This document shows, in pieces, positions 244 through 57,739 of a DNA stretch of 64,000 bases (its first letter is position 1; every line of letters begins with the position of its first letter). Origin of the DNA: Nitrospirota bacterium (GTDB lineage Bacteria > Nitrospirota > Thermodesulfovibrionia > Thermodesulfovibrionales > JdFR-88); the NCBI GenBank assembly GCA_014874185.1, contig JACWAF010000010.1, positions 1 through 64,000 on the forward strand. Direction: 5' to 3'. The translations under genes were made by a program, and so were the position numbers. Below the pieces are notes generated by a model that searched no databases, was not told the DNA's origin, and was given only the letters and a program-made list of their open reading frames with translations.

Positions 244-1248
244 CTATTTCACCTCTATCCCCTCTTCCGAAAGTCTTTTTAATATAAGTTTTTTAAGCTC
301 GAACTGCGCGAAATTCTGCTGGTTAAAATGGGCCGCATAACAGGTGAGCACGAATTCCAGGTAGTTCTCCCCCGCGGTTGCCGGGGGCGGGTTGAAACTG
401 ACCCTGGGATCGGGCTTATTAAGCAGGCCGGGGACGTAAGCCATGCCCTTTTGGGCCTCGTCCAGCATGAGTTTTTCCACCTTTTCAGGGTCCTGTCCGG
501 CGGCCACCCTCACCTGGATATTGAAGGAGGTGCTGGGGTCGGGCAGGCTGTAATTGGTGAGGACGCTCTGGGCCAGCTTGTTATTCGGGATTACGACTAT
601 GTTATTGGTGCTCACGAGAATCCGCGTGCTCCTTATCCCGATATCATCCACGTAGCCCTCCTGCCCGGTCTCGAGCCTGACGAAGTCCCCCACCTTCACG
701 GGCTTGTCAAGGAGTATTTGGATCCCGGCGAAGAAGTTCGAAAGCGTATCCTGCAAGGCAAGGGCCACGGCCAGACCGCTCACGCCCAGGGCCGTCAGAA
801 GCGGCGCTATCGAGACACCAAGGCTGTTCAGGACTGCCAGAAAGCCCACTACATAAACCAGGAATTTTATGAAGCCGTAGGTGAGGCCTGTGGTGGGCAG
901 GGGAAGGGCGCTCTTTTCAATGTAATACCTCAGGAGTCTTGCCAGCAGGTTTGCCGCCGCAATGCTCACTGAAATTATGAGCAGGACAAGAACTACCCGC
1001 TCGATCTCAATCGAGTATCTTTCGGGCAAATCGGAGACGCGCGCACCCGCGATCAGGGCGAGGGCCACGCACCAGAAATATGTCCCCCTGCGCAGACTGC
1101 CGGAGTATATCTCCCTGAGTGCCTTGGTGCGTCTTTCGGCCCACCTGTGGAGGACAAACAGGAGAAGCCATCTTATTGCAAGCAGGACGACAAATCCGCC
1201 GCCAGCTACGATAACAGGCACGGAAAATTCCCTCAGGTCCAGGCCCAT
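244..1248 (-). CDS. MscS-family small-conductance mechanosensitive channel
   Basis: The 334-residue protein has three to four hydrophobic segments in the N-terminal 140 residues. These are followed by the MscS pore helix (about residues 146-173, Gly/Ala-rich, ending in LQDTLSNFFAG) and the beta domain with the family pattern KPVKVGDFV. The C-terminal part is the mixed alpha/beta domain that forms the cytoplasmic vestibule in this family. Its role would be to release solutes from the inner membrane on hypo-osmotic shock. It is monocistronic and points away from the dsr operon. There is nothing to tell which MscS subtype it belongs to. Confidence 0.93.
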   Translation of the reverse strand: MGLDLREFSVPVIVAGGGFVVLLAIRWLLLFVLHRWAERRTKALREIYSGSLRRGTYFWCVALALIAGARVSDLPERYSIEIERVVLVLLIISVSIAAANLLARLLRYYIEKSALPLPTTGLTYGFIKFLVYVVGFLAVLNSLGVSIAPLLTALGVSGLAVALALQDTLSNFFAGIQILLDKPVKVGDFVRLETGQEGYVDDIGIRSTRILVSTNNIVVIPNNKLAQSVLTNYSLPDPSTSFNIQVRVAAGQDPEKVEKLMLDEAQKGMAYVPGLLNKPDPRVSFNPPPATAGENYLEFVLTCYAAHFNQQNFAQFELKKLILKRLSEEGIEVK

Positions 1249-1581
1249 TGAGAAAATACCACCCCTATTTTTCGAGAGCGGAAAAAATTTTCATCTGCGC
1301 CTATTATCCCCTGTTTACGGGTGTTTTTCAAGGCGGGAATCAATATGGCTTTGTACTTAAATTGGAAAGACTGCGCCAGAAAAGGTTTAAACAGCATGAT
1401 TATCCCCCTCCATTGACGGGAGGGGTTGGGGGAGGGTGAAGCGTTTACCACCCTCACCCTCGCCCTCCCCCCTCAAGGGGGAGGGGAATAGAAAAGCGCA
1501 AAAAATTAAAGAGTCAAAATTAAAAGTTCTCTTTGGTGTCCCACGGTCCGTGGGCTTTCTCTTGCAAGAGAAAGAACAGAA
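1249..1581. repeat. Intergenic region with two palindromic repeat types
   Basis: No gene is visible. At 1402-1489 there are inverted copies of the CCCTCCCC/GGGGAGGG repeat seen again near 46.5, 48.3, 54.2, 58.9 and 60.2 kb. At 1540-1554 there is a small hairpin (CCCACGGTCCGTGGG), and at 1555-1574 the 20-base palindrome CTTTCTCTTGCAAGAGAAAG, a member of a dispersed family found at several other gaps. Confidence 0.7.
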
Positions 1582-1612
1582 ATAAAAAGAGGGCGGGTGA
1601 AAACCCGCCCTC
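1582..1612 (-). terminator. Rho-independent terminator of the dsr operon
   Basis: A perfect 10-base stem (GAGGGCGGGT/ACCCGCCCTC) with a four-base loop is followed on the minus strand by a run of T. It lies about 20 bases beyond the dsrP stop codon, the right place and orientation to end the dsr transcript. Confidence 0.9.
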
Positions 1613-1633
1613 TCTGGAGGTAATCGATAATTC

Positions 1634-2827
1634 TTAGTGGGCTTCCTCGACGGCGCCCTTAAGCGGGGCCGGGTACTCGTTGGCCACTTTCACCGATATG
1701 GCTACCTTGTAAAGGACGGTGAGGACCAGAATGCCCGCCGCGTAAACGCCCATTGTGATGAGCAGCTCTATCCCGGTGGGCCAGTACTCGGTCACGTGGT
1801 CCATCGGGCTCGGAATGAAGCCGCCGATGACAAGCCCGAACCCCTTGTCTATCCACAACGATATGAACGTGGCCACGCAAGCCACGGCCAGCAGTTTCTC
1901 CTTCCGCCTTATCTGCGGGAAGACGAGCATGCTCATGGAGACGACCGCAAGCACGCTGGAGGTCCACATCAGGGGGACAAGCTTGTTATGGCCGTCAAGC
2001 CCCATATAGAGGTACTTGAACGAGGCCATGTGCTCCGGAATATGCGAATAGAAGGCGGTAAAGAATTCCAGCCCAAGCAGGAATACGTTTACGAACATGG
2101 CATAGGTGACGATCTTGCCCAGTGTCTGTATGGCTTCCTTGCCCGCATCGAACCTGGTTATCTTTCTTACAAGCAGGGCCAGCAAAAGAAGCAGCGCGGG
2201 GCCGGCCGCGAAAGCGGACGCGAGGAACCGCGCGGCCATTACGGCGCTGAGCCAGAAGGCCCTGCCCGGAAGACCGGCGTACAGGAAGGCCGTCACGGTG
2301 TGGATGCTCACCGCCCACGGCACGGAAAGATAGGTGAGCGGCTTCGTCCACGAGGGGTGCGGCACGCCCATCTTCTCCGCGTGCAGGTTGGCCCAGCCGA
2401 TCAGGAGGTTCAAGGCCAGATAGCCAGAGAGCACGAGTGAATCCCAGAACATCACCGAGTTCGGCCTGGGGTGCAGGACGACGTTCATTATCCTCATCGG
2501 CTGCCCCATGTCCACAAAGATGAACAGTATGCACATGGTGACGGCCGATACGGCGAGGAACTCGCCCAATATGACGATCCTTCCGAAGGTCTTGTAGTTG
2601 TGCAGGTAGTAAGGTATTACCAGCATGACGGCCGAGGCCGCCACGCCGACCAGGAAGGTGAACTGTGCGATATAGAACCCCCAGCTTACGTCCCTGCTCA
2701 TGCCGGTTATGCCCAAACCGTAGTTGAACTGCTTTATGTAGGCGGCCGTCCCTATGCCGACAAGTACCAGCAGGAACAGCACCCACGCCCAGTACAGCTT
2801 GCTTCCAGTCAGCGCTTTATCCAGCAT
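1634..2827 (-). CDS. dsrP: DsrP, NrfD-like membrane subunit of the DsrMKJOP complex
   Basis: The 397-residue protein is hydrophobic throughout, with about ten membrane segments of the NrfD/PsrC family. By family knowledge it is the quinone-interacting membrane subunit that exchanges electrons with the periplasmic ferredoxin DsrO and haem protein DsrJ. It is the last gene of the operon: its ATG lies inside the end of dsrO (11-base overlap), and a strong terminator follows. Identity rests on family features plus the full syntenic order M-K-J-O-P. Confidence 0.95.
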   Translation of the reverse strand: MLDKALTGSKLYWAWVLFLLVLVGIGTAAYIKQFNYGLGITGMSRDVSWGFYIAQFTFLVGVAASAVMLVIPYYLHNYKTFGRIVILGEFLAVSAVTMCILFIFVDMGQPMRIMNVVLHPRPNSVMFWDSLVLSGYLALNLLIGWANLHAEKMGVPHPSWTKPLTYLSVPWAVSIHTVTAFLYAGLPGRAFWLSAVMAARFLASAFAAGPALLLLLALLVRKITRFDAGKEAIQTLGKIVTYAMFVNVFLLGLEFFTAFYSHIPEHMASFKYLYMGLDGHNKLVPLMWTSSVLAVVSMSMLVFPQIRRKEKLLAVACVATFISLWIDKGFGLVIGGFIPSPMDHVTEYWPTGIELLITMGVYAAGILVLTVLYKVAISVKVANEYPAPLKGAVEEAH

Positions 2828-3632
2828 TGGTCTCGCCGCCTCCTATCACATAATAAATATTGGGCCCGGTCCCAAGCTCCGGCTTTCTGCGGATTGTGTA
2901 TGTCCTGGCCAGCGCCTTCCGCACGTCGGAGTTGGGATCATCTATGTCGCCGAAGACCAGTCCTCCCGCCGGTGCGGCCTCCACGCAGGCCGGCTGCTTG
3001 CCCTGGGCTATCCGCTCGTCGCAGAAGGTGCATTTTTCCACCACGCCCTTTGTCCGGGTGGGGTATTCCATGTTCAGGTCGTTCATGTTCAGGGCGAGCC
3101 GCGGATCGCGCCAGTTGAAGCTCCTGGCCCCGAACGGGCAGGCCGCCATGCAGAACCGGCAGCCGATGCAGCGGTGATAGTCCATCATCACTATGCCGTC
3201 GGGGCGCTTGAAGGTGGCCTTTGTGGGGCAGACCCTCGTGCAGGCCGGATGGTCGCAGTGGTTGCACATGACCAGGAAGGGCATCTCCTTGAATGCCTCG
3301 TCAAGGAAGGGGCTCTCCTGGCCGGGGAACACGTGCTTGTAGGTGTCCGTCCAGATCCATTTCACCTCGTCCTTCGGGTTTCCCCAGTTGGGCACGTTGT
3401 GCGTATGGTGGCAGGCGTATATCACCTTCTGGATGTCGTCTTTGGTCTTGAACTTGGACATGTCCACGACCATGGCAAACTGTTTGGCCTTAACGGTCTC
3501 GGGGGTCTCCATGCTCTCGAAGGCCTGCGCCCGGCCGCCGGAGCCGAACCTGCCCACCACGTTCATGGCCGTAACGCCGGCAGCGGCACCCCAGCCGGCC
3601 ACCTTGAAAAACTGTCTTCTGTCTATCTTCAT
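2817..3632 (-). CDS. dsrO: DsrO, Tat-exported periplasmic iron-sulfur subunit
   Basis: The start at 3632 gives 271 residues beginning with a Tat signal (RRQFFK at residues 5-10, then a short hydrophobic stretch). Its ATG overlaps the dsrJ stop as ATGA and has a G-rich ribosome site; a longer in-frame start upstream would bury the Tat motif. Cysteines are at 123/126/131/135, 155/158/161/165 and 201/204/216, plus a single Cys74. That is twelve in all, enough for three [4Fe-4S] clusters. The protein should shuttle electrons between DsrJ and DsrP in the periplasm. The pattern of missing cysteines is discussed in the findings. Confidence 0.94.
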   Translation of the reverse strand: MKIDRRQFFKVAGWGAAAGVTAMNVVGRFGSGGRAQAFESMETPETVKAKQFAMVVDMSKFKTKDDIQKVIYACHHTHNVPNWGNPKDEVKWIWTDTYKHVFPGQESPFLDEAFKEMPFLVMCNHCDHPACTRVCPTKATFKRPDGIVMMDYHRCIGCRFCMAACPFGARSFNWRDPRLALNMNDLNMEYPTRTKGVVEKCTFCDERIAQGKQPACVEAAPAGGLVFGDIDDPNSDVRKALARTYTIRRKPELGTGPNIYYVIGGGETNAG

Positions 3633-4048
3633 GATTGGCCCCCCCGTTCCTTTGGCGCGATGTGGCAGTCCCAGCAGTAGGGCTTCACGGCCATGTAGTT
3701 GTGACATCTGTCACAGAATTCCTTCTTGTTTGAGTGGCAATGCATGCAGGTGTTCTGAAGGCTGATGGTGAACTTCCTGCCGTCCGAGGAGATATAGAGC
3801 CTCTTGTTCTGACGGAGGGCCGAATCCCTCCACTCGTTCAGAAGCCGCATGTGATTGGCCTGCATGAACGCCTTCGGCTCCACGCAGACGTCCTTCCTGC
3901 CAAGCTGGGCCTGCACTTCCTTTATTACGGGCGTGTCCAGGCTTGGTTCGGGCCTTTTGACCGCCGTCCCGATGTTGGAGAAGAAGGGCAAGGTGGCAAT
4001 CCCAAGGAAGATGGCAAGCCCGATGATTATCTTTCCTCCGTTATACAT
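3629..4048 (-). CDS. dsrJ: DsrJ, triheme cytochrome c subunit
   Basis: From the ATG at 4048 the protein has 139 residues: one N-terminal membrane anchor or signal (residues 5-24) and three CXXCH haem-binding motifs (101-105, 112-116, 125-129). Cys55, before the haem motifs, fits the unusual cysteine haem ligand known in DsrJ. I chose 4048 because GGGAGG lies eight bases upstream; the GTG at 4057 would sit on top of that site. The gene overlaps the end of dsrK by eight bases and is translationally coupled to dsrO. It is exported and needs the system II haem machinery (resB/ccsB at 60.6-63.3 kb). Confidence 0.94.
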   Translation of the reverse strand: MYNGGKIIIGLAIFLGIATLPFFSNIGTAVKRPEPSLDTPVIKEVQAQLGRKDVCVEPKAFMQANHMRLLNEWRDSALRQNKRLYISSDGRKFTISLQNTCMHCHSNKKEFCDRCHNYMAVKPYCWDCHIAPKERGGQS

Positions 4049-5660
4049 TGCCTTCACCTCCCTTGGCGGGCAGGGGCTCGCCGCGGAGATTGGTCTCCCT
4101 CGGCTTCTCGCCCTTCATGACGAGGGCATTGGCGACCATCTCGTGCACGCCGGTGACGCCCACGCCCGGACACCAGTAATTCATCGAGGTCGTGAGGGCG
4201 GCCCTGTCTATGGCGCAGATATTGGCCAGCATGTTCACTCCGTATCTTTGCTGAACGTATCTTACGGCATTGGCCCTGGCCAGTCCGCCCTTCATCCTCA
4301 GGTCCATGTCCTCGCCCGCGTTCAGCCCGGAGCCCGACCCGCAGCAGAAGGTCTTTTCGCGGATCGTGTCCTCCGGCATCTCGTAGAAGTTGTTGCAGAT
4401 GTTGCGGATTATGTACCTGGGCTCTTCGAGGATGCCCATCCCGCGCGCCGTGTTGCAGGAGTCGTGATAGGTGACCACCAGGTCGTCGTTCCTCGAAGGG
4501 TCCAGCTTCAGCTTGCCGTGCCGGATGAGGTCCGCCGTGAACTCGGCTATGTGCACCATCTTTGTGCCTTTCGCGTTCTCGAAGACCGTGCCGGTTATCG
4601 GCGAACGGGGCACCTCCAGGAAGTCGGCCGGGCCGTTCCAGGTATCCATGTACTGGTTCAGCACGCGCCACATGTGGCCGCATTCGCCGCCCAGTATCCA
4701 TTTCACCCCCAGCCTCTTGGCCTCGGCGTATATCTTGTAGTTCAGCCGTTTTGCGGTCTCGTTCGATGTGAAGAAACCGAAGTTGCCTCCCTCCGAGGCG
4801 TATGTGCTCCAGGTGTAGTTCAACCCAAGTTCGTGGAAGAGCATCAGGTAACCCATGCAGGTGTATGTGCCGGGGTCCGCAAAGAGGTCGCCCGAAGGGG
4901 TGACAAAGAGTATGTCCGCGCCTTTTTTATTAAAGGGCGGGTCTATCTTGATGCCGGTCACCGTCTCTATGTCGTCCAGCATGAACTCTACATTGCTCTT
5001 TATCGTATGCGGCTCCAGCCCCAGGTGGTTGCCCTTCATGTAGCAGGCGGAGGCCGGGCCGGCTATCCACTCTATGTTCAGGCCCAGGAGGTTCAGCATC
5101 TCCCTGCCCATGATGGTTATCTCGGCCGTGTCTATGCCGTACGGGCAGAAGACCGAGCAGCGGCGGCACTCGGTGCACTGGAAGAAGTAATACCACCACT
5201 CCTTCAGGACATTTATGTCCAGGTCGCGCGCGCCGCCAAGCTTTCCGAGGAGTTTTCCGGGGGTGGTGAAGTAGCGCCTGTAGACGCTCCTCATCAGCTC
5301 CGCCCTCAGGACGGGCATGTTCTTCGGGTCTCCGGAGCCCAGGAAGAAATGGCACTTGTCCGCGCAGGCGCCGCACCGGACGCATATGTCCATGAAGAGC
5401 TTGAACGAGCGGTATTTCTTGAGCCTGTCGGCCATGCCCTCAAGGACCGTGTCCTTCCAGTTCTCGGGCAGCTTCCAGTCCTCATGGGAGGGGTTCCAGT
5501 CCCGCGCATTGGGGAGGCCCAGAATATTCAGGCTCTTCGCCTTCGCGCCCCAGCAGAACATACCCGGCTTTATCTCCACCGGGAGTTCCATCCAGGGCTT
5601 GGCCGGGGGCGTGTAATTGATCGATTGTATTATTTCATTGGGTTTCATTTCTTTGGCCAT
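4041..5660 (-). CDS. dsrK: DsrK, HdrD-like catalytic iron-sulfur subunit
   Basis: The 539-residue cytoplasmic protein has two ferredoxin-type cluster motifs (cysteines about 93-103 and 162-172). CCG-domain segments follow, ending in FCCGSGSG near residues 438-445, the signature of the non-cubane cluster in HdrB/HdrD relatives. In known complexes DsrK works with DsrM to reduce or oxidise DsrC trisulfide or disulfide. It starts three bases after dsrM ends, so the two are co-translated. No key cysteine appears to be missing. Confidence 0.95.
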   Translation of the reverse strand: MAKEMKPNEIIQSINYTPPAKPWMELPVEIKPGMFCWGAKAKSLNILGLPNARDWNPSHEDWKLPENWKDTVLEGMADRLKKYRSFKLFMDICVRCGACADKCHFFLGSGDPKNMPVLRAELMRSVYRRYFTTPGKLLGKLGGARDLDINVLKEWWYYFFQCTECRRCSVFCPYGIDTAEITIMGREMLNLLGLNIEWIAGPASACYMKGNHLGLEPHTIKSNVEFMLDDIETVTGIKIDPPFNKKGADILFVTPSGDLFADPGTYTCMGYLMLFHELGLNYTWSTYASEGGNFGFFTSNETAKRLNYKIYAEAKRLGVKWILGGECGHMWRVLNQYMDTWNGPADFLEVPRSPITGTVFENAKGTKMVHIAEFTADLIRHGKLKLDPSRNDDLVVTYHDSCNTARGMGILEEPRYIIRNICNNFYEMPEDTIREKTFCCGSGSGLNAGEDMDLRMKGGLARANAVRYVQQRYGVNMLANICAIDRAALTTSMNYWCPGVGVTGVHEMVANALVMKGEKPRETNLRGEPLPAKGGEGNV

Positions 5661-5663
5661 GTC

Positions 5664-6656
5664 TTACTCCTTCTCCACCGGGATGCCGGCCGCCTTCATC
5701 TTCTCCCTGAAGTCGTTTTCGTACTCTTCATATGTATGTACGTGAACGGGGTAGTTCCAGGGGTTTATATGACGGACAATGCGGCTGTTGTTCGAGAGAT
5801 TTCTGGTGGGGCTCAGGAAAACCCCGCCCGAGTGCATGAGCTTTGAGAACGGGAAATAGGCGAAGAGCACGCTTATAAGGAAGAGGTGCACATAGAAGAT
5901 GGTCCCAAGCCCCTGGGGCACTACCGGGTTGAATGTGGCAAGCCCCATGGTGAGGTTCTTCACCCCGACCACGTTCACCTTCAGGAAATACCTCATCAGG
6001 ACGCCCGAGCACCCTATGCCCAGTATCAGAAAGAGCGGGAAGTAATCGGCCGCGAGCGAGATGTATTTTACCTGCGGGATGTAGAACCTTCTTATAAGGA
6101 GGAACAGCACGGCGGCCAGGAATACGACATCCGTTATGTAAAGGAGCGGGGCCCCTATCTGGAGGAAGCTGTCAAGCCTCTCCACCAGGCCCACCGCCGG
6201 CGGCACATTGAAGATGAAGAACCTCAGGTGCCGTATGAGGATTATGAGAAACGTCCAGTGGAAGGCGAGCCCGGCCATCCAGAGCCATTTGTCCGACCCA
6301 TAGGCGATCTTCGGCCCTTCCCTCAGTTCGCCTTTAAGGTTCCTGAAGAGGGAGCGGAAGAAGAAGACCTCCAGGAACATCCTAGCGAGCACGCCAAGCG
6401 TGCCCGAGGGGTTCTCTATCTTGTTCTGCTTTATCCAGGGGAGGGATTTCTGCTGTCCGCAAGTGGTCGGTATCCTGAATGGGACGGGAACGCGCCCCCA
6501 TTTCACGATGCGGGCCAGAAACCCCACAATGAAAATAGCGAGGGCGGCATAGGGTATCGCGACCCCGAAGAGCCCGGTGAGCCCGGCCCCCTTCACCCCA
6601 AGGATGGCAAGCAGAACGAGTGCTACTACAGCCGCGAATGAAACAAAAGCGCTCAT
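5664..6656 (-). CDS. dsrM: DsrM, cytochrome b-type membrane subunit (NarI-like)
   Basis: The 330-residue protein has about six membrane segments and several histidines within or beside them (for example AFHWTF and LIRHLRF), as expected for a NarI-like dihaem cytochrome b. It passes electrons between the quinone pool and DsrK. It is the first membrane-complex gene of the operon and lies just after the RsbRD-N-like gene. The C-terminal cytoplasmic tail (from about residue 280) is charged. Confidence 0.94.
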   Translation of the reverse strand: MSAFVSFAAVVALVLLAILGVKGAGLTGLFGVAIPYAALAIFIVGFLARIVKWGRVPVPFRIPTTCGQQKSLPWIKQNKIENPSGTLGVLARMFLEVFFFRSLFRNLKGELREGPKIAYGSDKWLWMAGLAFHWTFLIILIRHLRFFIFNVPPAVGLVERLDSFLQIGAPLLYITDVVFLAAVLFLLIRRFYIPQVKYISLAADYFPLFLILGIGCSGVLMRYFLKVNVVGVKNLTMGLATFNPVVPQGLGTIFYVHLFLISVLFAYFPFSKLMHSGGVFLSPTRNLSNNSRIVRHINPWNYPVHVHTYEEYENDFREKMKAAGIPVEKE

Positions 6657-6684: not shown

Positions 6685-7230
6685 TTAACTTGCCTCGGGG
6701 TCCGTCTCTTCTTCCCCGGCCCCGCTGATAAGCTTTGCCTGCTGTAGAAGCCTGAACACGCTCCTCTTCGTCTCCTCCGCCTTCAGGTCATATATCCTCT
6801 CGCGGCAGCCCATGTAAATATCGAAGCAGACAAGTACTACATCGTCTATGGCGGAGTCGATCTCGAAAAGCTCTTCATGCAGGTTGTTCGCCCGTATCTC
6901 TTCTGCCGCGGCCTCCCGGACAACCCCTTTCAGCGCGAGTACAAACGAGACGGCATCTCGCGCGGTGAAATCCTGGACCGCCCGGACCCTGATAACGGTG
7001 TCCAGAAAGGGAACGATCTCTTCGGTATTGGCTGGCTTGTCCTTTGAGAGGACCTGGTCGAGGACCTTCTCCAGGGCCTCGCCGATGGCGTGGCCCACGG
7101 GGTTTTGGAAGCGGTTGGCCTGGCCTTTCAGAAACCTGGCGGTCTCGGCCGGATAGGTCTCAATCACCAGGTCGAACCATTTCTCGAGGATAACGGGCTT
7201 TTTTCCCGACAGGAGCTGCTTTAAGTTCAT
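6685..7230 (-). CDS. RsbRD N-terminal-like cytoplasmic protein of the dsr operon
   Basis: The product has 181 residues from the ATG at 7230, the first start that begins directly with the conserved-looking MNLKQLL. An upstream start would add a low-complexity Arg/Gly stretch. It is all-alpha, with a globin-like helical pattern typical of RsbRD N-terminal domains, and has no membrane segment. Genes of this type commonly sit between dsrC and dsrM in dsr operons; their role is unknown, with sensing or regulation being a guess. The ribosome site is weak (AAGG four bases upstream). Confidence 0.75.
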   Translation of the reverse strand: MNLKQLLSGKKPVILEKWFDLVIETYPAETARFLKGQANRFQNPVGHAIGEALEKVLDQVLSKDKPANTEEIVPFLDTVIRVRAVQDFTARDAVSFVLALKGVVREAAAEEIRANNLHEELFEIDSAIDDVVLVCFDIYMGCRERIYDLKAEETKRSVFRLLQQAKLISGAGEEETDPEAS

Positions 7231-7299
7231 AAGCCTTGCCGGAGAACGCCGACGGGCAGGACCCCCCTGCCCGTCACGCATTCCCGATTGTCGCCTTTC

Positions 7300-7635
7300 T
7301 TATACGCAGCCGGTCGGCTTCGGCAGTCCCGCGTAGCGGCAGGCCTGCTTCGCCGGCCCGGCGGGGTACAGCTCGTAAAGATACTTCGTGTTTCCCTTCT
7401 CTGGCCCCATCGACTTTGCTATCTCCTTGACCAGGATCTTGATCATGGGGGCTATCTGGTACTTCTGGTAGTAGTCCCTCAGGAAGTTGATCACTTCCCA
7501 GTGGTTCTCAGTAAGGGTCATGCCATCCTTCGTAGCCATATCGGTGGCAAGATCGGGTGTCCAGTCCGCCAGGTTCACGAGGTAGCCGTCATCGTCTAGC
7601 TCAATCTGCTTTCCCTGGAAATCAATAATAGGCAT
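7300..7635 (-). CDS. dsrC: DsrC, sulfur-carrier protein
   Basis: The 111-residue protein has the full DsrC C-terminal arm: Cys99 and the penultimate Cys110 ten residues apart (CRYAGLPKPTGCV). Both cysteines are needed in this family to form the DsrC trisulfide that DsrK processes. TusE-type relatives that only serve tRNA thiolation usually keep just the last cysteine, so this is a dissimilatory-type DsrC. It has a strong ribosome site (GAGGAGGAG) and leads the operon dsrC-RsbRD-dsrMKJOP. dsrAB are not in the window. Confidence 0.97.
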   Translation of the reverse strand: MPIIDFQGKQIELDDDGYLVNLADWTPDLATDMATKDGMTLTENHWEVINFLRDYYQKYQIAPMIKILVKEIAKSMGPEKGNTKYLYELYPAGPAKQACRYAGLPKPTGCV

Positions 7636-24147: not shown

Positions 24148-24429
24148 TTAAAAAATACCCATTACCTTTACTTCTTTTTCCAGCAGATCGATCAATTCCC
24201 CGTAGTCCAGCACTTTTACTTCTTTTTCCAGCTCATCCGGTCTGACGCCCCTAAGCTCAAGGTCATCCTTAACGGCGTACCCCATCCCGCAGAAACCCTC
24301 GAGCGCGTTCTTCCGGGCGTAATAGACCGCGTCCTGCATGAATACTATATCGGCTGCAAGCTCGCGGGCGATCCGCACCCCCCGCTTTGCTTCCGGGGTG
24401 CCCGGCGCGTTTTTTATAAAAACCAGCAT
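24148..24429 (-). CDS. dsrH: DsrH/TusB-like sulfur relay subunit
   Basis: The 93-residue protein is of DsrH/TusB size with the fold markers VFMQDAVYYAR (about 29-39), a YAVKDDLELRG stretch and a terminal DYGELIDLLEK motif. In DsrEFH and TusBCD the H/B subunit joins E/D and F/C in a heterohexamer. The cysteine often found near residue 20 is absent; the only Cys is in GFCGMG. It starts three bases after dsrF ends. Confidence 0.78.
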   Translation of the reverse strand: MLVFIKNAPGTPEAKRGVRIARELAADIVFMQDAVYYARKNALEGFCGMGYAVKDDLELRGVRPDELEKEVKVLDYGELIDLLEKEVKVMGIF

Positions 24430-24432
24430 GGG

Positions 24433-24789
24433 CTAAAAGATGAAGCTTGCGCGGGCCTCCGCGATAATGCCGGCAAGCTCGTATCCGTCCATCACCTTCG
24501 CCCCCTCGATCAACTCTTCCTCGCCCATCTTCTGCTCGCCAAGGGACATCCTCTCCGCGATCACGTCAATGCCCAGCCGGATGGCGTTCCTCATAGCGGC
24601 CTCCAGGTCTTCAAACCCGGCCTCCTCCGTCTTCTGCCCCTTTTTTGCCGCGAATACACCGCCGTCATAGAGCAGGAGGACGGTCTTTTCCCCGTTTGAG
24701 GCGCCAGAGGCGCTCCCGATGGCATGGCGCAGGGCCTCGGCGGCTTCCATTGAACCGTAAGGGGGCTTTCTTAGGATAATCACGTTCAT
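24433..24789 (-). CDS. dsrF: DsrF/TusC-like sulfur relay subunit
   Basis: The product has 118 residues from the ATG at 24789, which overlaps the dsrE stop as ATGA; an upstream in-frame start would run antisense to no known signal and would duplicate dsrE sequence. It has the DsrE/F fold: an N-terminal beta strand and KPPYGSMEAAEAL, a central VLLLYDGGVFAA strand, and a C-terminal MDGYELAGIIAEA. It has no cysteine, so it is probably structural in the complex. Confidence 0.8.
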   Translation of the reverse strand: MNVIILRKPPYGSMEAAEALRHAIGSASGASNGEKTVLLLYDGGVFAAKKGQKTEEAGFEDLEAAMRNAIRLGIDVIAERMSLGEQKMGEEELIEGAKVMDGYELAGIIAEARASFIF

Positions 24790-25130
24790 ATATTGAGCCA
24801 GATATCGGCCGTTTCGGCCATGGCGAAGATGCCCTTCAATGTGCCAAATTCCACGCCGTCCAGGTAGTCCTCCTTCCGCGCCCGGCGGAACGTGAGGCAT
24901 GTGCCTCAGAGATACGCCCTGAGCCCCTTTTTCATAAGCTCACCGAACCGTTCACCGGCATTGGGAACCCCTTTTGCCTTCTGCTCCTTTAAAAAGCAAT
25001 ATATCCCGTCGCCGGAGGCGATAAGGGTAACCTTGTGGCCTGCCTCCAAAGCGGCACCCGCAAGGGAGAGGGCCGTCGCGGCGTCCCCGCCGGAATAAGG
25101 GGAACTCTTTAAAAAGAGGGCAATTTCCAT
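24786..25130 (-). CDS. dsrE: DsrE-like sulfurtransferase with in-frame UGA, probable selenoprotein
   Basis: A plain reading stops at TGA (24906-24908) after 74 residues, too short for DsrE. Reading through, the frame continues GTCLTFRRARKEDYLDGVEF and on to residue 114. It then stops in an ATGA overlap with dsrF. The TGA (residue 75) stands where DsrE/TusD proteins have the sulfur-binding cysteine (Cys78 in the known A. vinosum DsrE and E. coli TusD), giving a U-G-T-C redox motif. Other parts of the fold are normal: a KSSPYSGGDAATALSLAGAA helix and TLIASGDGIYCF. Hairpins follow the TGA at once. Sec insertion is an inference; a sequencing error or true pseudogene would be the alternatives. Confidence 0.85.
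24874..24908 (-). promoter_or_regulatory. Candidate bacterial SECIS hairpins at the dsrE UGA
   Basis: Directly at the UGA is a perfect stem TGAGGC/GCCTCA (24893-24908). It is followed by TTCCGC-CGGGC-GCGGAA (24874-24890), a six-pair stem whose loop lies about 24-28 bases after the UGA. That position matches the known placement of bacterial SECIS loops. SelB binding cannot be judged by eye. Confidence 0.55.
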
Positions 25131-39203: not shown

Positions 39204-41116
<1,913 letters not shown>

Positions 41117-46601: not shown

Positions 46602-47012
46602 TTATATGAATAAGCTGTTCTGGGACTCCTGAGCGAATTCTATGAACTTGTCCGCATCGGCGACTTCGACGTTATCAACCAGGTCTTCCTTCTTGTAGCC
46701 CATCATCTGCATGGTGGCCGAGCAGGCTATGAACTTCACGCCGGCATCCCTGCACATCTGGAGCATCTCCGGCACGGTGGACCAGTTGATCTTCTTCGCA
46801 AGCTGCGGAAGCACTTCCATTCCCGCGGGCGGAGGGAGCTGTTTGTTCATCTCCTTGTGCAGAATGTTTATCCCGCCGAAGGCGAAGAATATCCGCACGT
46901 CCGTGTCCAGGGCCGCCGCGGTCGCGCCCAGCACCAGGGGGGCATAGGCCATGTCCAGCGTGCCCTTGCTGGCTATTATGGCCATCCTCTTGCCGTTTCC
47001 GTTTCCAGACAT
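46602..47012 (-). CDS. DsrE2-like (DsrE/F superfamily) protein
   Basis: The 136-residue protein is of the DsrE2 or peroxiredoxin-like DsrE family, distinct from DsrE at 24.8 kb. Conserved Cys in ACSATMQMMG (about residue 96) sits at the switch position; a second Cys lies in MLQMCRDAGV. It has a hydrophobic N-terminal half but no clear membrane anchor. DsrE2 members move sulfane sulfur in known systems. The gene faces away from a Crp/Fnr regulator. Confidence 0.82.
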   Translation of the reverse strand: MSGNGNGKRMAIIASKGTLDMAYAPLVLGATAAALDTDVRIFFAFGGINILHKEMNKQLPPPAGMEVLPQLAKKINWSTVPEMLQMCRDAGVKFIACSATMQMMGYKKEDLVDNVEVADADKFIEFAQESQNSLFI

Positions 47013-54349: not shown

Positions 54350-57300
54350 ATGCGAAAGCACGCTGATTACGTGCCCCTTCACCTGCATACCGAGTACAGC
54401 CTTTTAAACGGGGCCATAAAGATAAAGGAGCTGGTGGAGACGGCGAAGGAATGGGGCCTTCCAGCCGTAGCCATGACGGACCACGGCAACCTCTTCGGCG
54501 CGGTGGACTTCTACAAGCAGTGCACCAAGGCCGATATCAAGCCCATAATAGGCTCTGAGGTTTATCTCACCACAAAAAGCAGGCTGGACAGGCAAAAAGA
54601 GGAATCCCCCTTCCATCTGGTGCTTCTGGCCAGGGACAATGACGGCTACAAGAACCTGGTCACGCTGGTCTCCAAGGCCTTCATCGAGGGTTTTTACTAC
54701 AAGCCGCGAATAGATAAAGAGATTTTGGAGCAGTACTCCGGAGGGCTGATAGCCCTCAGCGCCTGCATGAAGGGCGAAGTGCCCTGGCACCTCATGCGCA
54801 ATGCAATGGACAGCGCCCGCGAGGCCGCCCTCTGGTACAAACACGTCTTCGGCCCTGAAAATTACTATATGGAGTTGCAGGAGAACGGCCTTCCGGAGCA
54901 GGCCATTCTGAATAAAAAGCTCCTGGAGCTGGCAAGGGAGCTTAATATCCGGGTTGTCGCCACCAACGACTGCCATTATCTTAAAAAAGAAGACGCCAGG
55001 GCGCACGACATACTGGTCTGCATCCAGACCGGAAAGACGGTAAACGACCCCAACAGGCTCAAGTTTCAGGGTGATGGGCTGTATTTCAAGAGCCCCGAGG
55101 AGATGGGCCGCGCCTTCGCAGACCTGCCCGAGGCGATAAGCAATACGATGGAAATAGCCGAAAAATGCAATGTGGAGTTCCACCTGAAGGGCCATTACCT
55201 GCCAAAATTCGAGTCCGAGGACGGCTCCCCGCCCGGAAAGATACTTGAGGCCCTGGTTAAAAAGGGCATGGAGGAGCGGTTCGGGCCGAACCCGGCGGAG
55301 GCATACCAGAAGCGCCTCTCCCATGAGATGGCGGTAATAAAGAAGATGGGCTATGAATCGTACTTCCTGATCGTCAGCGATTTCATAAACCACGCCAAGC
55401 GCAACTTCATCCCGGTGGGGCCGGGCAGGGGCTCGGCCGCGGGAAGCCTTGTTGCCTATGCGCTTGCGATAACCGAGATAGACCCCATCCGCTACGGTCT
55501 GCTGTTCGAGCGTTTTCTGAACCCTGAGCGCGTGAGCATGCCCGATATAGACACGGACTTCTGCAAGGACAGGCGCCAGGAGATCATAGATTACGTGGCC
55601 AAAAAGTACGGGGCGGGGCACGTGGCACAGATTATCACATTCGGGACGCTGGGGGCGAAGGCCGCCATCCGGGACGTGGCGCGCGCGCTGGACATCCCCT
55701 ACCAGGAGGCGGACAAGATAGCCAAGCTGGTCCCTGACGGGCTGAACGTAAGCCTCGATCATGCCCTGCGCATGGAGCCCAGGCTGAAAGAGATGTACGA
55801 GACCGAGGCCAGCGTAAAAGAGCTTATCGATATAGCAAAGAGGCTTGAAGGGCTCTCCCGTCACGCGTCCACCCATGCGGCGGGCGTGGTCATATCGCCC
55901 GAGCCGCTCACCGAGATCGCGCCTTTATACAAGAACCCCACTGACGGCACGATAACCACGCAATTTGACATGGTATCGATAGACAGCCTGGGGCTTGTGA
56001 AATTCGATCTCCTGGGCCTGAAGACCCTTACCATAATAGACAAGACCGTCCGCTTCATAAAGGAAAGAGGAGAGGACTTCTCGCTCAAGGAAATACCCTT
56101 GGACGACCCGGCCACATACGCGCTTCTTTCGGCGGGGCACAGCACCGGGGTATTCCAGCTTGAAAGCGCGGGCATGCGGGACATTCTTATCAAGCTCGGC
56201 CCGGAGCGCTTCGAAGACCTGATAGCCCTGGTGGCCCTCTACCGTCCGGGCCCGATAGGAAGCGGGATGATAGACGACTTCATAAACCGCAAGAAGGGCC
56301 GCATCCCGATAAAGCACGACCTTCCGGGCCTGAAAGACATCCTTGGCGAGACCTATGGCGTCATCCTCTACCAGGAGCAGGTGATGGAGATAGCCCACCG
56401 GCTTGCCGGGTTCTCCCTGGGGCAGGCCGATATCCTCAGGAAGGCGATGGGCAAAAAAATGCCCGAGGAGATGGAGAAGCAGAAAGAGGCCTTCATAAAA
56501 GGGGCGAAGGCGAACAACACAGCCGAGGCCAAGGCCAGGAAGCTTTTCGAGCTGATGGCCAAGTTCGCCGAGTACGGGTTCAACAAGTCCCACTCGGCGG
56601 CATACGCCTACGTGGCCTACCAGACCGCGTATCTGAAGGCCCATTACGGGGCGGAGTTCATGGCCGCAACGATGAGCGTCGAGCTTGACAACACGGACAA
56701 GATAATGAAGTTCATCAAGGAATGCCAGGCGATGGGCATAAAGGTCCTGCCGCCGGACATAAACGTCTCGGACACGGAGTTCAAGATAATTGGCGGCGCG
56801 GTAAGGTTCGGGATGGGGGCGGTGAAGGGCGCGGGGGCCCAGGCGATAGAGCAGATCGTGGGCGAGCGCACCCTGAACGGGCCATTTGAAACCTTCGAGG
56901 ACTTCCTCGAAAGGACCAACAAAAAGGTAAACAAGAAAGTGCTGGAGGCCCTTGTGAAGGCGGGCGCGTTCGATTCACTTGGGATTACCAGGAAGGGCTG
57001 CGCGGGGCTCCTTGAGACCCACCAGAGGGGCGAGTCCATCTTCCAGCAGAGCTTCTTCGGCGGGGTGGCCGAACCGGCCCTGAAGGGGCAGGCCCCGGCC
57101 GCAAGGGACGAATGGGACGAGCAGGAGATGCTCCGGAATGAGAAAGAGGCGCTTGGGTTTTACGTCTCCGGCAACCCGCTTACCAGGTTCAAAGACGCGC
57201 TCCTTTTGAATGACGCGAAGAACACGGCCGCCCTCCTGGATATGGAGGACAAGACGGAGATAGCCGTTGCGGGGATCATCTCCGCCGTGAAAAAGATAAA

Positions 57301-57739
57301 GACCAGGGAAAAGGGGCTGATGGCTTCCTTGCAGATTGAAGACGACGAGGGCTCGGTGGACGTGGTCGTCTTCCCGGACCTGTACAAGGAAAACGGAGAG
57401 CTTTTAAAGAAGGACGTGCCGGTTTTTGTGAGGGGCACGCTGGAGAAATCCGACAAGGGGCCGAAGGTGATCGCAAGGCAGATAATGCACCTGGAGGAAG
57501 CGGTGAACTCAAAGCCTAACGGAAAGAAGCTGGAGCTTTCGGTCCCGCCGCATGCCGATTTGAAGAAATTAAAAGAGTACATCGAAGATAAAAACGGGGG
57601 CATGCCCCTTTTCATCAGGATTAAAACCCCCCGGCTTCAGGTTATAATAGAGACTTCGTTCAAGGTGCCCCATGACGGCGCTTTCAGGGGCGGGCTTATG
57701 CAGCTTTTGGGAGATGAGGCCGAGGTGAAGTTCATCTGA
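54350..57739 (+). CDS. dnaE: DnaE, DNA polymerase III alpha subunit
   Basis: The 1129-residue protein has a PHP domain at the N terminus ([15 protein letters not shown]), the palm with catalytic Asp in [12 protein letters not shown] (about residues 399-410), and a [16 protein letters not shown] block. It continues with thumb and finger blocks ([13 protein letters not shown]-like region near 624-636, in [18 protein letters not shown], cut here), a helix-hairpin-helix and an OB domain ([19 protein letters not shown]). It is the main replicase. It precedes accA by one base, a known pairing. Confidence 0.97.

What the first reader, a model, noticed from the sequence alone, without database searches (positions are those of the whole stretch)
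24786..25130. DsrE subunit with UGA in place of the sulfur-carrying cysteine: a probable selenoprotein in a DsrEFH relay
Seen: in the dsrE frame an in-frame UGA (24906-24908) is codon 75, followed by Gly-Thr-Cys and 36 more residues of normal DsrE sequence, ending in an exact ATGA overlap with dsrF. Known: Cys78 of DsrE/TusD carries the persulfide in DsrEFH/TusBCD relays, and DsrE-like selenoproteins have been reported in other bacteria. Inference: Sec75 would form a U-G-T-C redox motif and turn the relay into a selenium-dependent one, feeding DsrC at the head of the dsrMKJOP operon in the same window. A Sec-based sulfane carrier coupled to DsrC and DsrMKJOP is, to my knowledge, little described.
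Basis: partly seen in the sequence, partly recalled or inferred. Interest (0 to 1): 0.92.

Follow-up and report, generated by a model that had tools for sequence, protein, structure and literature searches.

The report
Selenocysteine DsrE in a sulfur relay
A small sulfur-carrying protein in a sulfur-cycling Nitrospirota bacterium uses the rare amino acid selenocysteine where its relatives use cysteine, and the same arrangement is kept across dozens of related species next to a sulfide-oxidising enzyme, pointing to a little-described selenium-dependent branch of sulfur metabolism.

Summary
dsrE runs 25130→24786, with in-frame UGA as codon 75 and 39 further codons before its stop, which overlaps dsrF by ATGA.

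The UGA is almost certainly selenocysteine:
- The genome has SelA, SelB, tRNA-Sec(UCA) and a SelD that is itself a selenoprotein.
- About 60 orthologues in the phylum keep exactly this one UGA in a U-G-x-C motif. A separate scan of named genomes gave 74 of 76.
- One family has Cys in that column and lacks the hairpin.
- A conserved stem-loop lies 14 nt past the UGA.
- Selection is about equally strong on both sides of the UGA.
- The column aligns with Cys78 of A. vinosum DsrE.

DsrE-F-H synteny is nearly universal, but dsrC and tusA are next to it in 0 of 41 relatives. A sulfide:quinone oxidoreductase (SQR) is in 39 of 41. The genome holds a second Sec-DsrEFH operon carrying that SQR, and a Cys-type DsrEFH–TusA cluster.

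Best reading: a selenium-using DsrEFH-like sulfane-sulfur carrier working with SQR. DsrE-like UxxC selenoproteins were known, without a function; DsrEFH 'type II' (2026) mentions no selenium. A new variant of a known kind.

The parts
24786..25130 (-). dsrE(Sec), 114 aa plus TGA stop
   Evidence: Translation with TGA=U; Pfam DsrE 1.3e-17 over the UGA; AlphaFold2 model pLDDT 91, best PDB matches E. coli YchN and A. vinosum DsrE/DsrF
24906..24908 (-). In-frame UGA, codon 75 = Sec of the U-G-T-C motif
   Evidence: Sequence; column conserved as TGA in orthologues; aligns with Cys78 of 2HY5 chain A
24874..24890 (-). SECIS-like hairpin UUCCGC-CGGGC-GCGGAA, loop about 24 nt after the UGA
   Evidence: MFE -10.3 kcal/mol, reached by 1% of 2000 synonymous recodings; best hit in the window of a covariance model built without this sequence: 24908-24867, 13.6 bits, E 0.019
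24433..24789 (-). dsrF-like, 118 aa, ATGA overlap with dsrE; the longer 155-aa ORF from 24900 runs over the Sec part of dsrE in another frame
   Evidence: Pfam DsrE 2.6e-12, TIGR03010 3e-7, below its cut-off; syntenic in relatives
24148..24429 (-). dsrH-like, 93 aa
   Evidence: Pfam DsrH 4e-9, TIGR03011 41.8 bits against cut-off 49.2; PDB match TM0979
7300..7635 (-). dsrC with both C-terminal cysteines (CRYAGLPKPTGCV), possible but unproven sulfur acceptor
   Evidence: TIGR03342 161 bits, Pfam DsrC; sequence
1634..6656 (-). dsrM, dsrK, dsrJ, dsrO, dsrP region, separate from dsrEFH
   Evidence: ORF order and sequences; gene names from order, not each tested by HMM

Best explanation
The gene encodes a selenoprotein: DsrE whose sulfur-carrying cysteine is selenocysteine 75, made by SECIS-dependent read-through of UGA. 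With the next two genes it forms a DsrEFH/TusBCD-like complex. Shown by sequence: the Sec codon, the hairpin, the machinery, the synteny and the column homology. Inferred: the selenolate of Sec75 takes sulfane sulfur (from polysulfide or persulfide made by SQR, whose gene follows dsrEFH in nearly all relatives and follows the second Sec-DsrEFH operon in this genome) as an Se-S adduct. It then hands the sulfur to a thiol acceptor, DsrC or a TusA/DsrE2-like carrier. Cys78 three residues on resolves oxidised forms. The net effect would be to let a reductive-type Dsr bacterium oxidise or disproportionate sulfide.
For: Sec: tRNA-Sec UCA, SelB 360 bits, SelA 627 bits, Sec-containing SelD SSCAGUAAK. 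One internal TGA in about 60 orthologues and in the 39%-identical paralogue; 74 of 76 named-genome loci. Over 62 Sec genes the hairpin is 87% paired against 33-57% when slid; mean MFE -7.7 against -1.6 +/- 0.2 for synonymous recoding (0 of 500); the Cys homologues give -0.03. Compensatory changes in 17 cells, 0 of 500 shuffles as high. Of 92 Sec-DsrE genomes, 88 have SelB against 89 of 304 without. Function: F and H beside E in 40 and 41 of 41 loci, SQR in 39. The SQR matches A. aeolicus SQR at 1e-94 with catalytic cysteines aligned. Profile match to A. vinosum DsrE and fold matches to A. vinosum DsrE and E. coli TusD. dsrA in 83 of 92.
Against: No experiment shows Sec incorporation or sulfur transfer. 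The window copy is a long branch (0.87), its hairpin has 6 bp and GG instead of the usual GU in the loop, and its covariance-model score is weak (E 0.019). In this genome SQR sits with the paralogue, not with the window copy. The acceptor is unknown; dsrC is never adjacent in relatives. Presence of dsrA does not separate Sec-DsrE genomes from other SelB genomes (Fisher p 0.33). The UxxC motif also fits a thiol-redox role.
Confidence: 0.72

Rival explanations
1. It is a selenoprotein but a thiol-disulfide or polysulfide reductase: the UxxC pair works like a thioredoxin-type redox site, reducing persulfides or polysulfides made by SQR, rather than passing sulfur on to DsrC.
For: U-G-[GT]-C is kept in nearly all orthologues; E. 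coli YchN, the nearest solved structure, has CKTC at the same place; A. vinosum DsrE lacks the second Cys (CVAA); SQR is the conserved neighbour.
Against: DsrF and DsrH are nearly always kept with it, as in the TusBCD and DsrEFH transferases. The genome's own Cys-type DsrE beside TusA also has CxxC. One orthologue has U-G-T-S (L058).
Confidence: 0.17
2. It is a selenium-handling protein, like YedF or the SelD-linked DsrE/SirA proteins: Sec75 takes part in selenium delivery or detoxification instead of sulfur oxidation.
For: DsrE-domain YedF is tied to selenium metabolism (PMC5322559); weak YedF match (E 0.034); strong co-occurrence with SelB.
Against: No sel gene was found among the recurrent neighbours in 76 loci; the recurrent ones are DsrF, DsrH, DsrE2-like, SQR, RND and LolA-like. 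SelB co-occurrence follows from the need for Sec alone.
Confidence: 0.06
3. The UGA is a real stop or a decayed codon: the gene makes a 74-residue fragment, or is a pseudogene in this genome, and only the relatives are selenoproteins.
For: Window copy on a long branch, weaker SECIS, and no SQR beside it.
Against: Frame intact after the UGA with all invariant residues kept, including C78, R82 and N113. Own hairpin stronger than 99% of synonymous recodings. Intact ATGA coupling to dsrF and dsrH.
Confidence: 0.05

Closest known systems
DsrE-like UxxC selenoproteins (Sargasso Sea and GOS metagenomes, Desulfovibrio vulgaris; PMC1088965, PMC2398784, PMC1794560; listed in the 2026 review PMC13188914)
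   Same: Pfam DsrE domain with Sec in a UxxC motif and a bacterial SECIS
   Different: Those reports list the family as uncharacterised and the passages read give no DsrF/DsrH or SQR operon.
DsrEFH of Allochromatium vinosum (type I, 2HY5) and E. coli TusBCD (2D1P)
   Same: Three-gene set, fold (TM 0.89 to 2HY5 chain A), carrier residue column = Cys78
   Different: Sec instead of Cys, extra Cys at +3, about 20% identity; scores far below the TusD/TusC equivalog cut-offs; no conserved Cys column in DsrH
DsrEFH type II of cable bacteria and sulfate reducers (PMC13293266) / YTD cluster (PMC13047784)
   Same: DsrEFH-like complex in organisms with reductive-type Dsr; proposed to allow sulfur oxidation
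   Different: Type II uses Cys67 and sits with tusA and yedE; neither paper mentions selenium. The Sec operon sits with SQR, not tusA. The Cys-type H-E-F-TusA cluster of this genome is the likelier type II member.
E. coli YchN (1JX7)
   Same: Best profile and fold match; CxxC at the Sec position
   Different: From general knowledge, not encoded with DsrF/DsrH partners; cysteine only

Membership tests
Bacterial selenoprotein | In-frame UGA with conserved coding sequence on both sides | tested here: met
   dN/dS 0.066 before and 0.088 after
Bacterial selenoprotein | Homologues with Cys in the UGA column | tested here: met
   CGTC in L048-L051 and L168; Cys78 of 2HY5 chain A; C77 of L180 DsrE
Bacterial selenoprotein | SECIS stem-loop just downstream with G at the start of the loop | tested here: met
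   for the family; the window copy itself is weaker but the best hit in its window
Bacterial selenoprotein | SelA, SelB, SelC and SelD in the genome | tested here: met
Bacterial selenoprotein | Selenium shown in the protein | not testable with these tools
   Needs 75Se labelling or mass spectrometry
DsrEFH/TusBCD sulfurtransferase complex | Three syntenic DsrE-fold genes E, F, H | tested here: met
DsrEFH/TusBCD sulfurtransferase complex | Carrier residue at the Cys78 position of DsrE | tested here: met
   Position conserved, residue is Sec
DsrEFH/TusBCD sulfurtransferase complex | Scores above the TIGR03012/TIGR03010/TIGR03011 cut-offs of the canonical (type I) subunits | tested here: not met
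   15.3 against 89.25, 30.4 against 94.15, 41.8 against 49.2 bits
DsrEFH/TusBCD sulfurtransferase complex | Sulfur transfer to DsrC/TusE, hexamer formation | not testable with these tools
   Biochemistry needed
DsrEFH type II (PMC13293266) | Synteny with tusA and yedE | tested here: not met
   tusA beside Sec-dsrEFH in 0 of 41 loci; yedE not searched for by itself but not among the recurrent neighbours
DsrEFH type II (PMC13293266) | Match to the published type II HMMs | not tested
   Models not available here
DsrEFH type II (PMC13293266) | Co-occurrence with reductive-type dsrAB | tested here: inconclusive
   dsrA in 83 of 92 genomes. In this genome a DsrD-like gene follows dsrB but scores 23.8 bits against the 24.2 cut-off

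The most novel reading that the evidence does not exclude
A third, selenium-dependent type of DsrEFH sulfur relay exists across the class around Thermodesulfovibrio: Sec-DsrEFH encoded with SQR. Surveys keyed on intact DsrE genes would miss it because standard annotation cuts DsrE at the UGA, and it would make sulfide oxidation in these bacteria depend on selenium supply.
Probability: 0.55. Interest if true: 0.78.

Novelty: new variant of a known kind. Interest (0 to 1): 0.63.

Why it matters
DsrEFH is used as a genomic marker of sulfur oxidation, and its Cys-type variant in sulfate reducers was reported only in 2026. A Sec version kept in about a quarter of the sampled genomes of one phylum, joined to SQR, gives the long-listed but unexplained 'DsrE-like selenoprotein' a concrete pathway. 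It predicts a selenium requirement for sulfide or sulfur oxidation and explains why annotation would miss it.

Tried and rejected
Read error, true stop, and UGA reassignment were considered. Against reassignment: window genes use TAA 9, TAG 8 and TGA 3 as stops, the long ORFs of the window (e.g. 39204-40838, GroEL-like, and 54350-57739, DnaE-like, named from sequence only) are open without internal TGA, and the in-frame TGAs found sit in DsrE and SelD, both known Sec families.

Rfam found no SECIS in the window at gathering score; bacterial SECIS elements are not well modelled there (own knowledge). A single-sequence genome-contig scan found nothing; the alignment scan worked but its two peptide patterns reach only close relatives, so absence from other phyla is not shown.

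dsrA co-occurrence within SelB-positive genomes is not informative (p 0.33). The tree is too weakly supported to say whether Cys or Sec came first.

Full report
What is there. The feature lies on the minus strand. Reading TGA as U, window 25130→24786 gives MEIALFLKSSPYSGGDAATALSLAGAALEAGHKVTLIASGDGIYCFLKEQKAKGVPNAGERFGELMKKGLRAYL-U-GTCLTFRRARKEDYLDGVEFGTLKGIFAMAETADIWLNI. Codon 75 is TGA at 24908-24906. The final TGA overlaps the dsrF start as ATGA, and dsrF (24789→24433) is followed by dsrH (24429→24148). Pfam DsrE matches the read-through protein at 1.3e-17 over residues 1-109, dsrF matches DsrE at 2.6e-12 and dsrH matches DsrH at 4e-9. Standard ORF calling splits this into a 74-aa fragment and an over-long 155-aa dsrF.

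Is UGA read as Sec? The genome (G000, 2.4 Mb, 42 contigs) has tRNA-Sec with a UCA anticodon, SelB, SelA and SelD, and that SelD carries its own UGA in the usual SSCAGUAAK site. Searching the read-through protein in 396 genomes of the phylum gave about 60 orthologues at 44-63% identity, each with exactly one TGA, and four with none. Extracting 70 loci showed that the TGA is always in the same column, in U-x-x-C (mostly U-G-x-C) with rare exceptions, and that the four without TGA (one family, L048-L051) read C-G-T-C there. A separate scan of named genomes returned 76 loci, nearly all labelled Nitrospirota or Thermodesulfovibrionia: 74 TGA, one TGC, one unresolved. Selection is similarly strict before and after the UGA (median dN/dS 0.066 and 0.088 over 122 pairs). 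Of 92 genomes with a Sec-DsrE, 88 have SelB, against 89 of 304 without. Three of the four exceptions lack SelA too (completeness 74, 77 and 96%) and one has it. These counts were copied by hand from the tool tables, and related genomes are not independent.

SECIS. Fourteen bases after the UGA lies a hairpin, typically CUUUCGCC-GUGC-GGCGAAAG. Over 62 distinct Sec genes its 8 pairs form in 87% of cells, against 33-57% when the partner strand is slid. Mean folding energy of the segment is -7.7, against -1.6 +/- 0.2 for synonymous recodings (0 of 500 as low); in the Cys homologues it is -0.03. On 25 diverse sequences 17 cells change on both sides and still pair, 0 of 500 shuffles as high. A covariance model made without the two copies of this genome finds the second copy at 7e-6. 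Its best hit in the 64-kb window is exactly at the UGA, but weakly (13.6 bits, E 0.019). The window copy has 6 pairs, a loop CGGGC with GG rather than GU, and an energy reached by 1% of synonymous recodings. So the element is present but less typical than in relatives.

Carrier position. A profile of the family matches E. coli YchN (3e-8; CKTC at the Sec column) and A. vinosum DsrE (0.0012), whose Cys78 falls on the Sec column. The AlphaFold2 model (pLDDT 91) best matches YchN, both A. vinosum DsrE and DsrF, and also E. coli TusD. Profile comparison with the genome's own Cys-type DsrE (L180:5849-6208) puts Sec on Cys77 of C-E-A-C (97%, P 4e-11).

Surroundings. In 41 relatives with 12 kb of sequence, dsrF is found in 40, dsrH in 41, an SQR in 39, an RND/MMPL transporter in 27 and a LolA-like protein in 18; dsrC, tusA and dsrA are in none. 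DsrE2-like genes recur as well. The SQR is a good one: A. aeolicus SQR at 1e-94, with Cys159 and Cys341 of the L047 protein on the cysteines at the active site (which cysteines are catalytic is from general knowledge). In this genome that SQR-RND-LolA operon follows a second Sec-DsrEFH (L047, motif U-T-G-C, with an ArsR-type regulator upstream), while the window copy stands alone. The genome also has a Cys-type H-E-F-TusA cluster, dsrAB followed by a DsrD-like gene, and in the window dsrC with both C-terminal cysteines ahead of dsrMKJOP. dsrC is 17 kb from dsrEFH in a separate operon.

Mechanism. Shown: a selenoprotein gene, its hairpin, its partners and its neighbours. Inferred from established knowledge of DsrEFH/TusBCD and SQR: SQR makes sulfane sulfur, Sec75 accepts it, and the E-F-H complex passes it to a thiol acceptor; Cys78 (in UxxC) may reset the site. 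That DsrC is the acceptor is plausible but unproven, since another DsrEFH in the cell sits beside TusA. A redox (persulfide-reducing) role is the main rival.

Relation to the literature. DsrE-like UxxC selenoproteins have been listed since 2005 (PMC1088965, PMC1794560, PMC2398784), and the 2026 review still calls their functions largely uncharacterised (PMC13188914). DsrEFH type II (PMC13293266) and the YTD cluster (PMC13047784) are Cys-based and neither paper mentions selenium. The type II survey required three syntenic genes and found Cys in 99.3% of sequences, so Sec forms cut at the UGA would drop out; this last point is inference. Searches for selenoproteins in Nitrospirota or Sec with DsrC found nothing relevant in the held library, which lacks most subscription papers. 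Verdict: real, Sec assignment about 0.95, sulfur-carrier role with SQR about 0.7, DsrC as acceptor about 0.4.

Noticed in passing
L047 (G000:C38), E 5094-5435, F 4720-5073, H 4428-4706, SQR 3188-4375, RND 840-3173, LolA-like 55-843, ArsR 5491-5838, all minus: A second Sec-DsrEFH operon in the same genome (U-T-G-C motif, 39% identical), followed by SQR, RND and LolA-like genes.
   Followed up: yes
L059 and L060 (genomes G025, G016): A third kind of UGA-containing DsrE (U-G-T-C, 33% identical) with no DsrF/DsrH match beside it, in another family of the phylum.
   Followed up: partly
L048-L051 (family f23): Cys forms of the same gene that lack the SECIS hairpin; at least three of these genomes still have SelA, so the switch is not just loss of Sec machinery.
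   Followed up: partly
L061 and L062: Sec-DsrE with an extra cysteine-rich insert (ERGGCADGRCS...) after the Sec motif.
   Followed up: no
L058: Sec motif U-G-T-S: the second cysteine is lost, which would test whether it is needed.
   Followed up: no
L180:5458-6903 (G000:C30): Cys-type DsrH-E-F-TusA cluster, probably DsrEFH type II, in the same genome.
   Followed up: partly
window 6685-7281, minus: An RsbRD N-terminal domain protein lies between dsrC and dsrM.
   Followed up: no
window 46602-47012, minus: DsrE2-family protein (PF13686, 121 bits) standing apart from other dsr genes.
   Followed up: no
L047:3188-4375: The SQR also hits NCBIfam 'type III SQR, selenoprotein subtype' (96 bits, cut-off 525) although it has no UGA itself.
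   Followed up: no
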